Source: Methanomassiliicoccus sp.
GTDB taxonomy: Archaea > Thermoplasmatota > Thermoplasmata > Methanomassiliicoccales > Methanomassiliicoccaceae
Reading direction: 5' to 3'
Assembly (NCBI GenBank): GCA_018262895.1
Contig: JADFDJ010000015.1
Coordinates: 1 to 56,031 of the forward strand
DNA length: 56,031 bases
The position numbers were made by a program, and so were the translations under genes. The notes under the pieces are model-generated. The model was not told the DNA's origin and made no database searches. It was given only the letters and a program-made list of their open reading frames with translations. Below are positions 50,108 to 56,031 of the stretch, piece after piece. Position 1 is the first letter of the stretch; each line of letters opens with the position of its first letter.

Positions 50108-50180
50108 GGGCAGATAGATCAGCTGGAAGATCGCGACATTCGCAATGTCGAGGCCGCGGGTTCAAATCCCGCTCTGTCCA
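50108..50180 (+). tRNA. tRNA-Ala(CGC)
   Basis: A 73-nt tRNA. Acceptor GGGCAGA pairs with TCTGTCC including the G3:U70 wobble that identifies alanine tRNAs. D arm GATC/GATC; anticodon arm CGACA-TTCGCAA-TGTCG (anticodon CGC); T arm GCGGG-TTCAAAT-CCCGC; discriminator A. The integrase gene's stop lies within its T loop. Confidence 0.95.
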
Positions 50181-51127
50181 CTCAAACCATCTGGCTCGAC
50201 CCCTGTTTTGCTGTAACTTACAGCAGCCTGATATTTCGCCAATTTCACCATCGCATCGGCCTTGTCGTCCATGTTCAGTCCCAGGTACAGTATCGTCGTC
50301 CTGGGGTCCGAGTGGCCGAGCAGGTCCATGATGGTCTCGATCGGCACGCCGGCGAGCCACAGCATCCGGCCGTAGGTGCGGCGCAGCGTGTGGTTCGTGA
50401 ACTTCACCCCGAGGCGAGCGGCCACGGCCTGCACCCTCTTGTCGACGGCGGTCCGCTTGTACGGATGCAGCCGTCCGTCCCTCGCGTAGATGAGCAGGGC
50501 ATCCGGGACCATTACGGCCGGGTTCTTGGCCCGGGCCTTGGATATCTCCGTCTCCCTGATGAGCCGGTAATGTTCCAGCGCTGACAGGGTGTGCGGATGG
50601 AACGCCAAGGACCTTGGCTTCCCGCCCTGCCTCCCTTTGCCGAGCACGTTCATGTATCCCAGCTTGATGTCCGATACCTTGAGCCGCAGGACCTCGACGC
50701 GGCGAAGCCCCATCTCCAGCTCCAGGTGCAGCACTATGCGCTCCATGCCCTCGGCCATCTCCAGGGCCTTGACGGCCTGTGACGGCGAGATCCAATCGGC
50801 GTTGGGCCTGGTGTCCGGCGGCCACTCCAGGTTCAGGTCCTTGATGATGGTGTTGCGGTGGAACATGGCATAGCTGTTCAGGACGCTCATCTCCCTCCTG
50901 GTCATGCCCGGCTGCTCCCGGAGCCAGAGCACGGTGTCCTTGTCCCACTTGCGGGGATTGGCCTCGTACCCTTCCTCGTTGAGCCGCCGTGACCACTTGC
51001 CGATGAGCCAGCGGTAGCCGTTCACCGTCACATCGGCCCTCCTTCTCTCCTTGAGGTGATCTATGAAGTCGTTTTGCAGGGAGCTGAGGTAGATGGCCTT
51101 GGTGGTCATTCTTCTCAGCCTGCCCAT
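50162..51127 (-). CDS. Tyrosine recombinase/integrase overlapping tRNA-Ala
   Basis: The 321-residue integrase has an N-terminal core-binding domain (1-105). Catalytic residues are Arg in MGLRRVEVLRLK (about 142), Lys in GKGRQGGKPR, H246/R249 in NHTLRRTYG, H272 in LGHSDPRTT and the nucleophile Y281 in ILYLGL. All are present, so it is likely active. The last six codons and the stop are the antisense of the tRNA-Ala T arm and acceptor. The attachment core therefore lies inside the 3' end of the gene. A start at the second Met (51109) is possible. Confidence 0.92.
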   Translation of the reverse strand: MGRLRRMTTKAIYLSSLQNDFIDHLKERRRADVTVNGYRWLIGKWSRRLNEEGYEANPRKWDKDTVLWLREQPGMTRREMSVLNSYAMFHRNTIIKDLNLEWPPDTRPNADWISPSQAVKALEMAEGMERIVLHLELEMGLRRVEVLRLKVSDIKLGYMNVLGKGRQGGKPRSLAFHPHTLSALEHYRLIRETEISKARAKNPAVMVPDALLIYARDGRLHPYKRTAVDKRVQAVAARLGVKFTNHTLRRTYGRMLWLAGVPIETIMDLLGHSDPRTTILYLGLNMDDKADAMVKLAKYQAAVSYSKTGVEPDGLSGQSGI

Positions 51128-53366: not shown

Positions 53367-55712
53367 ATGAGCGATCCTCAGACTTACTTCCATCATGGTG
53401 AGTTGCTTATGGAGGTTCCTGAAGTCGGGAAATATGTCATTGTTCGTAGAAGACCAGGCATCATTCGCAATGTAGTTCCGATCGAAGACACCTCCGAGGG
53501 CAGATTGAACCTGGTAGAGGTGGACTATATCGATGGGTACGAACACCCTGATGAGGACCGTTTAATATGGGAGCGTGAGTTCAACGCTAACGTTCTCAAG
53601 GTTATCGATAACCCTGCGATCAATGACCCTTCCTCGAGACCGGACGATCCCGATCGTTTCAATAGCTTCCTCAATTCTCTCAGCTGGACATCCAATACAA
53701 AATTTTGGTCGGACTCCAAAGGTGTTCACTACGAGCGTTTACCTATTCTCAGCCCATGGTTCAGCTCCGTTCAGGTCGAGGATTATCAGTTGTTCCCGGT
53801 CCTTCAGGCTCTATCCATGCCTCGGGTGAATATGCTCTTGGCCGACGATGTTGGCCTGGGTAAGACCATCGAGGCGGGGCTGATCGTTCAGGAACTGATC
53901 CGTCAGCGTCGAATTAGAAGGATCATGATCATCTGCCCCTCTTCTCTCCAAGTGCAGTGGCAGGACGAGATGAGGGATAAGTTCAGCCTGGATTTCACCA
54001 TCCTCGATAGCGAACAAGTTTATTCCATTCAGCGTGAACTAGGTATGGACGCCAATCCCTGGACCGTTCATCCTCGAATCATTACCTCAATGGATTATCT
54101 TAAGCAACAAGATGTATGGAAGAATATGATACGAGGCTCCGAGGGCCTCTTATCAAAGGCCTCGGCGATGTTGCCATGGGATCTGCTCATCGTAGATGAG
54201 GCGCACAATTTCTCTCCGCGTTTCAGGGACCGAAGCGAACGCTATACCATGCTGAAGAACGTGACCCCCCTGTTCGAGCATCATTTGTTCTTGACCGCAA
54301 CCCCTCACAACGGTTATACCGTCTCTTTTACAGGACTCCTGGAACTCCTCGATCCCATTCGATTTCAACAAAAGACCAAACTGAACGATGATGACAGGAG
54401 ACAACTGCAACTGGTCATGGTCCGCCGAATGAAGGAGGAGTTGAACAAGGATCGTCAACAACCCCGGTTCGCCAAACGAGGCATCGTGGGAATACCGATC
54501 GAGCTGACCCCTGTCGAGGTCAAGCTCTACCAAGAGATGAGAAAGTACCGTTTAGGTGCTCGTAAGGAACTTGCCCGCATCGGTAAGAAAGAAAAGAATC
54601 TGGGGGATTTCCTTTTCACGTTACTGACCAAGAGGTTGCTATCCAGTTCCTATGCGTTCGCGAGGACGTGGTGGAACCATGTGGAAGGATTCGACCTTGA
54701 GGGGTTCGGGTTCGAGGATGCCGATAGATCCAGGGAGCGTGCTGAGCAACCCGTTGCCGAGGATGACGAAAAGGAGCTGCGCGAGATCGATGCCGTTCGC
54801 CACGGGGCGGCCTGGTTGAGGAAGTATAGCAAAACATTGGAAAACTACATTCGTTCCGTCTCTAGGGCATTGGAGGAGAACGGATGGACAATGGAAGCGA
54901 CCAGACAACCTCTCGACAGGATGACCATGCTGCCTGAGGATCGTAAATGGGACCGCCTTTTAGATTGGGTACGCAAGAACTTGCAGCAGGGGAAAAAATT
55001 CCATCCTGATGAACGGTTGATCGTGTTCACCGAATACAAGGACACCATGAACTATCTGGTGGAGCGGTTCCGACGAGAGAAGATCACTGCGCCAACACTA
55101 CAAACGTTATATGGTGGCGCGGAAGCGAAGGTCCGGCAGGGCGTGAAGGACCAGTTCAATGATCTGACCTCCGATCTTCGGATCTTAGTGGCCACGGACG
55201 CCGCCTCAGAAGGTCTGAACCTGCAGACCTCCTGCCGTTACGTCATTCATCAAGAAATCCCCTGGAACCCCATGCGCATGGAGCAGCGAAATGGGAGAGT
55301 GGATAGGCATGGGCAATACCGAGACGTGACGGTCCATCACTTCGTATCCGACCAGATAGAGGACCTCAAGTTCCTGGACTATGTTGCCAAAAAGGTACAC
55401 ACCGTTCGTGATGAGTTGGGCTCGGTGGGCAAGGTTCTCGATGAAACGGTTATGGATTATTTTGCCCTAGGGAGCGTGGATACGAAGGAGGTCGATAGGC
55501 GGGTCAAGGTCACTGAGAGCGTGGCCCAAGATAGGCAGCCTCAGAACCTGGCGGTCCCGCTCACACAGGTCGTCCCGGTGTGTCCCACCTGCCATGCTAT
55601 GATCCACTCAGTTACACCAGCGCTTGCACCGGATGAGGTCCGCTCGATGATGGCATTGCATGGTACAGGCCACATACCCTGCTCAAGCCCGCCCTCTGCT
55701 CCCCTCCCCTAG
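53367..55712 (+). CDS. drmD: DrmD-like SNF2 helicase truncated and fused to an HNH nuclease tail
   Basis: The protein has 781 residues. The opening VPEVGKYVIVRRRPGIIRNVVP and ILSPWFSSVQVEDYQLFPVLQAL are typical of DISARM DrmD. Helicase motifs are complete: DDVGLGKT (160-167), VDEAH (276-280), TATPHNG (310-316), ATDAASEGLNLQ (609-620) and RNGRVDRHGQ (641-650). After about residue 725 the DrmD C-terminus is absent. Residues 726-764 instead read as the end of an HNH endonuclease (VPVCPTCHAMIH, PALAPDEVRSM), followed by a Pro/Ser tail. GC is lower than in the neighbours, suggesting transfer. The other drm genes are not in the window. Confidence 0.75.
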   Translation: MSDPQTYFHHGELLMEVPEVGKYVIVRRRPGIIRNVVPIEDTSEGRLNLVEVDYIDGYEHPDEDRLIWEREFNANVLKVIDNPAINDPSSRPDDPDRFNSFLNSLSWTSNTKFWSDSKGVHYERLPILSPWFSSVQVEDYQLFPVLQALSMPRVNMLLADDVGLGKTIEAGLIVQELIRQRRIRRIMIICPSSLQVQWQDEMRDKFSLDFTILDSEQVYSIQRELGMDANPWTVHPRIITSMDYLKQQDVWKNMIRGSEGLLSKASAMLPWDLLIVDEAHNFSPRFRDRSERYTMLKNVTPLFEHHLFLTATPHNGYTVSFTGLLELLDPIRFQQKTKLNDDDRRQLQLVMVRRMKEELNKDRQQPRFAKRGIVGIPIELTPVEVKLYQEMRKYRLGARKELARIGKKEKNLGDFLFTLLTKRLLSSSYAFARTWWNHVEGFDLEGFGFEDADRSRERAEQPVAEDDEKELREIDAVRHGAAWLRKYSKTLENYIRSVSRALEENGWTMEATRQPLDRMTMLPEDRKWDRLLDWVRKNLQQGKKFHPDERLIVFTEYKDTMNYLVERFRREKITAPTLQTLYGGAEAKVRQGVKDQFNDLTSDLRILVATDAASEGLNLQTSCRYVIHQEIPWNPMRMEQRNGRVDRHGQYRDVTVHHFVSDQIEDLKFLDYVAKKVHTVRDELGSVGKVLDETVMDYFALGSVDTKEVDRRVKVTESVAQDRQPQNLAVPLTQVVPVCPTCHAMIHSVTPALAPDEVRSMMALHGTGHIPCSSPPSAPLP

Positions 55713-56026
55713 CAGCTGCCAGTCCCTACAGTGTTGGCTGCGAATGCGCATAGGCAGTGGACAGGACAGCCCTGGCAGTCGGGGTTTCTTGGCCTGCAAT
55801 GCGCGTGAGAGAGGTCGATGATGGCAGAGTGCAGCTCCCTTGAGGCGTAAGGCCTACCCAGCTGCTCGTATATCCCCGCCACCCTTGATGCCTTTACCTT
55901 ATCCTTACCCATTACAAGACGCCCAAGCACCCTCTCCACATTGCTGTCGACCATTGGTATCCAAAAGCCGTATCCGAAGGAAAGCACACAATCTGCCACA
56001 TAGCCTCCGACCCCCCTCATCTCCAT
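55709..56026 (-). CDS. MIG/MutY-like HhH-GPD DNA glycosylase (5' end outside the window)
   Basis: The visible 105 residues are the C-terminal part of an HhH-GPD glycosylase. They contain hairpin GVGGYVADCVLSFGYG, the catalytic Asp in PMVDSNVERVLGRL, and the 4Fe-4S loop CRPRNPDCQGCPVHCLC (C-x6-C-x2-C-x5-C). Tyr replaces the EndoIII Lys in the hairpin, as in MutY and the G:T mismatch enzyme MIG. It would remove mispaired bases, possibly T from deaminated 5-methylcytosine. Its stop overlaps the end of the drmD-like gene. The gene continues past the right edge. Confidence 0.8.
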   Translation of the reverse strand: MEMRGVGGYVADCVLSFGYGFWIPMVDSNVERVLGRLVMGKDKVKASRVAGIYEQLGRPYASRELHSAIIDLSHAHCRPRNPDCQGCPVHCLCAFAANTVGTGSC

Positions 56027-56031
56027 CAGAT

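What the first reader, a model, noticed from the sequence alone, without database searches (positions are those of the whole stretch)
53367..55712. DrmD-like helicase fused in frame to the tail of an HNH nuclease
All helicase motifs are intact but the DrmD C-terminal region is replaced after about residue 725 by the last 40 residues of an HNH protein (CPTCHAMIH). A deletion from within drmD to within a downstream HNH gene would give exactly this and would have removed the remaining DISARM genes. It may be a dead locus or a new single-gene product.
Basis: partly seen in the sequence, partly recalled or inferred. Interest (0 to 1): 0.7.

Follow-up and report, generated by a model that had tools for sequence, protein, structure and literature searches.

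The report
Cut-off ARMADA helicase gene, contig end
A helicase gene from a known antiviral defence family is joined after about two thirds of its length to the last bases of an unrelated nuclease gene, only 496 bases from the end of an assembled DNA piece, so it is best read as a broken gene or an assembly error and not as a new fusion protein.

Summary
The 781-residue ORF at 53367-55712 is a DrmD-family SNF2 helicase up to Arg723 (base 55535). It then runs in frame into 58 codons whose middle part matches the end of HNH endonucleases. A second cut gene, the C-terminal 106 residues of a MutY/EndoIII-type glycosylase, follows on the other strand.

Two facts change the reading. First, the window is a whole contig: the join lies 496 bases from its end and the glycosylase runs off it. 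So nothing shows that downstream genes were deleted. Second, close homologues are full length with an ordinary C-terminus, and none has an HNH tail. The same-genus MAG copy (92% identical) and one from the same order (62%) head an operon of helicase, type IIG/PglX-like methylase and one-piece YprA/DUF1998 helicase. That is ARMADA Type I in its archaeal gene order, not DISARM.

The remaining genes and the lost 376 residues are not in this 99.7%-complete, 30-contig assembly. The tail lacks the first half of the HNH fold with its catalytic His, so no nuclease was gained. I take the ORF as non-functional: a contig-end chimera (about 0.5) or a real deletion joint (about 0.38). Reads or PCR across the join would decide.

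The parts
53367..55535 (+). 5' two thirds of an armA/drmD-family SNF2 (BrxHII/RapA-like) helicase gene, codons 1-723; the homologue in the same genus starts at the ATG corresponding to 53409 (Met15)
   Evidence: NF038317 652 bits; 83.5% DNA identity to the same-genus copy, ending at 55535
55536..55712 (+). unrelated in-frame tail: C-terminal end of an HNH endonuclease gene (VPVCPTCHAMIH...), 58 codons plus stop, without the first half of the HNH fold
   Evidence: 47-50% identity over about 36 residues to Klebsiella HNH endonucleases, 39% to the HNH protein at L046:8946-9752
55709..56029 (-). 3' part of a MutY/EndoIII-superfamily DNA glycosylase gene with the iron-sulfur cluster region, convergent with the ORF and cut by the contig end
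   Evidence: TIGR01084 E 5e-15; PDB MutY E 2e-13; the rest of the gene is not in the assembly
50108..50181 (+). tRNA-Ala(CGC), probable integration site of the island that carries the helicase gene
50162..51127 (-). tyrosine recombinase gene whose 3' end overlaps the tRNA-Ala 3' end, as in integrative elements
   Evidence: (PF00589 E 3e-17)

Best explanation
The ORF is the first 723 codons of an ARMADA Type I-like armA (DrmD-family) helicase gene, carried on an island behind a tRNA-Ala/integrase pair. It is joined by chance and in frame (1 in 3 by luck) to unrelated DNA that holds the end of an HNH nuclease gene and part of a DNA glycosylase gene. The joined product is not a working defence protein. 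It has both RecA-like helicase lobes but lacks the 376-residue C-terminal region kept in the close homologues; its tail lacks the HNH catalytic His; and the methylase and YprA helicase that ARMADA needs are not in the assembly. The join most likely arose in assembly at a contig end (my estimate 0.5), otherwise by a recent deletion or recombination in the island (0.38). Shown: the junction, its distance from the contig end, the full-length homologues and the missing partners. Inferred: the origin of the join and the loss of function.
For: Window = entire 56,031-base contig; the join is 496 bases from the end, a place where about 1.8% of random joins would fall. DNA homology to the same-genus MAG contig (PtaU1.Bin030) stops abruptly at codon 723. 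Close homologues G004 (92% identical), G027 (62%), G471 (5'-truncated by its contig) and G019 (41%) all keep the ordinary C-terminus. The operons of G004 and G027 are helicase, IIG/PglX-like enzyme, fused DUF1998 helicase. The lost C-terminus and the methylase gave no match in this genome, and the YprA helicase only short generic helicase matches. The tail DNA occurs nowhere else in this genome or 100 relatives. The only full HhH-GPD gene in the genome is a different one on contig C5. The tail retains only the second half of the HNH domain. In ARMADA Type II, deletion of any one gene abolished defence (PMC12458937).
Against: The tail's codon usage is as atypical for the host chromosome as the helicase gene's, as expected if both lay on one acquired island. 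The join is in frame and the tail ends at the HNH gene's likely own stop. The helicase portion is under strong purifying selection (dN/dS 0.04 against the same-genus copy), although that mostly reflects time before any join.
Confidence: 0.87

Rival explanations
1. A real deletion or recombination inside the island removed the end of armA, armB, armC and the start of an HNH gene, leaving a dead fused remnant, which is the first reader's version with ARMADA in place of DISARM. (It shares the non-functional reading with the best explanation and differs only in the origin of the join.)
For: The helicase gene sits beyond a tRNA-Ala/integrase pair, such islands rearrange often, the tail and helicase have similarly foreign codon usage, and the partner genes are absent from a 99.66% complete assembly.
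Against: The join is 496 bases from the contig end. No relative found here has an HNH gene at the matching place downstream of an ARMADA operon. Absence from 30 contigs is weak, because island contigs are often left unbinned.
Confidence: 0.38
2. A working single-gene product: a DrmD-like helicase with a new short zinc-finger-like tail.
For: The open frame is intact, all helicase motifs are present, and the CPTCH...H motif could bind zinc.
Against: One genome only. The catalytic half of HNH is absent, 376 native residues are lost within a conserved region, and no partner genes are in the assembly. The join lies at a contig end.
Confidence: 0.04
3. A native architecture: a family of helicases with an HNH-like C-terminus.
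For: None found beyond this ORF.
Against: About 100 relatives and 390 genomes of the phylum plus a scan of 84,980 species genomes gave only homologues with the ordinary C-terminus. The genome-contig scan used only two short patterns, so it sees close relatives alone.
Confidence: 0.01

Closest known systems
ARMADA Type I (Bell et al. 2025, PMC12458937): BrxHII/RapA-like helicase ArmA, PglX-like methylase ArmB, YprA-like helicase ArmC with a C-terminal Vsr-type nuclease
   Same: The 92% and 62% identical homologues head operons with this gene order, the order described for many archaea. In G027 the third gene is one 1795-aa DEAD-DUF1998/MZB protein with a C-terminus that reads like a Vsr/PD-(D/E)xK nuclease.
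   Different: The window has only the first 723 codons of the first gene; nothing of armB or armC is in the assembly.
Class 1 DISARM (drmD, drmMI, drmA, drmB, drmC)
   Same: The helicase passes the NCBIfam DISARM_DrmD cut-off. Plasmid relatives at 30-36% identity (Rhodococcus, Planktothrix, Pseudanabaena) are in DISARM loci with drmA, a DUF1998 protein and drmC.
   Different: The close archaeal relatives have no separate drmA and drmB and no drmC; the window has no other drm gene.
HNH endonucleases (PF01844), such as one on a Klebsiella plasmid and one beside a GHKL ATPase gene in G086
   Same: The last ~36 residues, VPVCPTCHAMIH...DEVRSMM, align.
   Different: The first half of the domain (CxxC...HVHH) is absent from the fusion.
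MutY/EndoIII-family glycosylases, including short ones beside cytosine methylases on plasmids and in G328
   Same: The C-terminal 106 residues match the family and the iron-sulfur loop.
   Different: Fragment only; the subfamily is not resolved and no methylase gene is in sight.

Membership tests
DrmD family (NCBIfam NF038317) | score above the curated cut-off of 610 bits | tested here: met
   652.5 bits, profile 2-710 of 1021
DrmD family (NCBIfam NF038317) | full length, including the C-terminal ~370 residues | tested here: not met
   Homology ends at residue 723; the homologues continue to 1083-1085 aa
Class 1 DISARM | separate drmA helicase and drmB DUF1998 genes, plus drmC PLD gene, beside drmD and drmMI | tested here: not met
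   No such genes in the window; close relatives have a fused helicase-DUF1998 gene and no drmC recognised next to it
ARMADA Type I | BrxHII/RapA-like helicase gene | tested here: met
   PADLOC BrxHII 263 bits, RapA-family hits; incomplete in the window
ARMADA Type I | PglX-like methylase gene next to the helicase | tested here: not met
   Present in G004 and G027 (Eco57I/type IIG, 1683 aa or split in two frames); not found anywhere in this assembly
ARMADA Type I | one-piece YprA helicase with DUF1998-type module | tested here: not met
   Present in G027 (1795 aa, MZB) and cut by the contig end in G004; in this genome only short generic helicase matches
ARMADA Type I | Vsr-type nuclease at the YprA C-terminus | tested here: inconclusive
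   G027 C-terminus reads PDF...AIYLDG...H...RD by eye; no Pfam or PDB hit on that part
HNH endonuclease | both halves of the HNH motif, including the first catalytic His | tested here: not met
   Only the second half is present; no Pfam HNH hit on the tail

The most novel reading that the evidence does not exclude
The join is real and the shortened helicase with a CxxCH...H zinc-finger-like tail is expressed and does something on its own, for example as a dominant regulator of, or decoy for, other ARMADA/DISARM systems.
Probability: 0.03. Interest if true: 0.55.

Novelty: new member of a known kind. Interest (0 to 1): 0.13.

Why it matters
It shows how an in-frame join at a contig end can look like a new fusion gene. 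It also corrects the label: the nearest relatives in Methanomassiliicoccales carry ARMADA Type I-like operons, so a 'DISARM_DrmD' hit alone does not show a DISARM system. If the join were real it would document decay of an ARMADA locus inside an archaeal tRNA-integrated island.

Tried and rejected
Native helicase-HNH architecture: no homologue with that tail. Missing half on another contig: the lost C-terminus and armB gave no match and armC only generic helicase matches; the tail DNA is unique in the genome; the only other HhH-GPD gene is unrelated. Source of the tail: no close DNA or protein match in 100 relatives, 400 class members, viral contigs, phages or plasmids. Second att site of the island: the tRNA 3' end has no second copy in the window; the weak partial hit on contig C20 is a separate tRNA-Val. 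Codon usage to tell island DNA from a foreign chimera: tail and helicase both atypical, so not decisive. Structure prediction of the full-length homologue with two sequences gave pLDDT 31 and was not used.

Full report
What is there. The ORF at 53367-55712 (+) is open for 781 codons. Residues 15-721 match the DrmD family of SNF2 helicases strongly (NCBIfam DISARM_DrmD 652.5 bits against a cut-off of 610; PADLOC DrmD 645 bits; BrxHII about 263 bits). Both helicase lobes are found by Pfam. The profile match stops near position 710 of 1021, so about a third of the protein is missing at the C-terminus.

The junction. The same-genus genome G004 carries the gene full length (1085 aa from the corresponding ATG). 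It is the same contig as MVRB01000058.1 of the MAG Methanomassiliicoccales archaeon PtaU1.Bin030. DNA identity with the window is 83.5% from 53387 and ends at 55535, the last base of codon 723 (Arg), after which nothing aligns. G027 (62% identical), G019 (41%) and G471 (the C-terminal 809 residues on a short contig) continue with the same native C-terminus; the window alone departs. The window part is under strong purifying selection relative to G004 (59 amino-acid differences in 709 codons, dN/dS 0.04).

The tail. Residues 724-781 have no relation to the native C-terminus. The segment VPLTQVVPVCPTCHAMIHSVTPALAPDEVRSMM aligns with the last part of HNH endonucleases: about 47-50% identity to annotated HNH endonucleases of Klebsiella plasmids (tblastn E 5e-4) and 39% to a 268-aa HNH protein of a genome of the same order (E 3e-6). 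The alignment shows that the first half of the domain (CxxC and HVHH, with the catalytic His) is absent, so the fusion carries no HNH active site. Directly after the stop, on the minus strand, lies the C-terminal part of a MutY/EndoIII-type glycosylase (E 5e-15 to TIGR01084; PDB MutY E 2e-13), which runs off the sequence. Short glycosylases of this superfamily sit beside cytosine methylases on some plasmids and in G328, so the tail may come from a restriction-modification locus; that is inference.

The contig end. The window is the whole contig C6 (56,031 bases) of a 30-contig assembly estimated 99.66% complete. The join is 496 bases from its end. For a random join the chance of lying so near either end is about 1.8% (2 x 496 / 56,031). 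Contig ends do tend to fall in variable islands, which softens that number. The tail DNA has no other match in the genome or in 100 relatives beyond short chance hits. The remaining 376 residues of the helicase and the methylase gene have no match in the assembly, and the YprA helicase only short generic helicase matches.

What the intact locus looks like. In G004 the helicase is followed by a 1683-aa Eco57I/type IIG-like enzyme (PADLOC type IIG 1199 bits, DrmMI 493 bits) and a DEAD helicase most similar to DruE, cut by the contig end. In G027 the same order is seen, with the methylase split over two overlapping frames and a complete 1795-aa helicase with an MZB (MrfA-type) domain. Its last ~120 residues contain PDF...AIYLDG...H...RD, which reads like a Vsr/PD-(D/E)xK nuclease; this is by eye and not confirmed by Pfam or PDB sequence search. 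This composition and order match ARMADA Type I as described for many archaea (PMC12458937). More distant relatives at 30-36% identity on bacterial plasmids are in DISARM loci with separate drmA, DUF1998 gene and drmC. So 'DISARM' in the finding should read 'ARMADA-like', and the DrmD profile does not separate the two.

Context. The helicase gene lies about 3.2 kb beyond a tRNA-Ala/tyrosine-recombinase pair (tRNA 50108-50181, integrase 50162-51127), the layout of an integrative island. The far attachment site was not found.

How it most likely works. It most likely does not. ArmA-type helicases act with the methylase and the YprA helicase; in the tested Type II system every gene was needed (PMC12458937). 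This ORF lacks the C-terminal third, has gained no catalytic domain, and has no partner gene in the assembly. Whether the join was made by the assembler or in the cell cannot be settled from one consensus sequence. I put the contig-end chimera at 0.5 and a true deletion joint at 0.38, with about 0.05 for a working or native fusion and the rest for other artefacts such as a chimeric read.

Novelty and interest. The helicase is a member of a known family, the fusion is probably not a gene product, and the useful result is the correction to ARMADA and the warning about the contig end. Interest 0.13.

Noticed in passing
L027:10054-15085 (G027, single-contig genome): The type IIG/PglX-like gene of this ARMADA-like operon is split into two overlapping frames (978 and 730 aa, overlap about 98 bases): a frameshift, a sequencing error or possibly phase variation.
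   Followed up: no
window 50108-51127: tRNA-Ala(CGC) with a convergent tyrosine recombinase gene overlapping its 3' end, the start of a probable integrative island whose other end is beyond the contig.
   Followed up: partly
L046:5496-9752 (G086): SNF2-type helicase, a GHKL-type ATPase and an HNH nuclease gene in a row in a genome of the same order; a possible uncharacterised defence cluster.
   Followed up: no
L093:9344-9637 (Planktothrix plasmid NZ_LR882964.1): A small HNH endonuclease gene directly upstream of drmD in a DISARM locus; the HNH gene is before drmD, not after it, so it does not explain the fusion.
   Followed up: no
L079:1031-2620 (G328): Cytosine methylase gene followed directly by a short HhH-GPD glycosylase gene, as on Thermus and Caldicellulosiruptor plasmids.
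   Followed up: no
L058 (G000 contig C20, 6336 bases): Second island-like piece in this genome: tRNA-Arg(TCG) next to an integrase gene and a 433-aa frame beyond it that was not identified.
   Followed up: no
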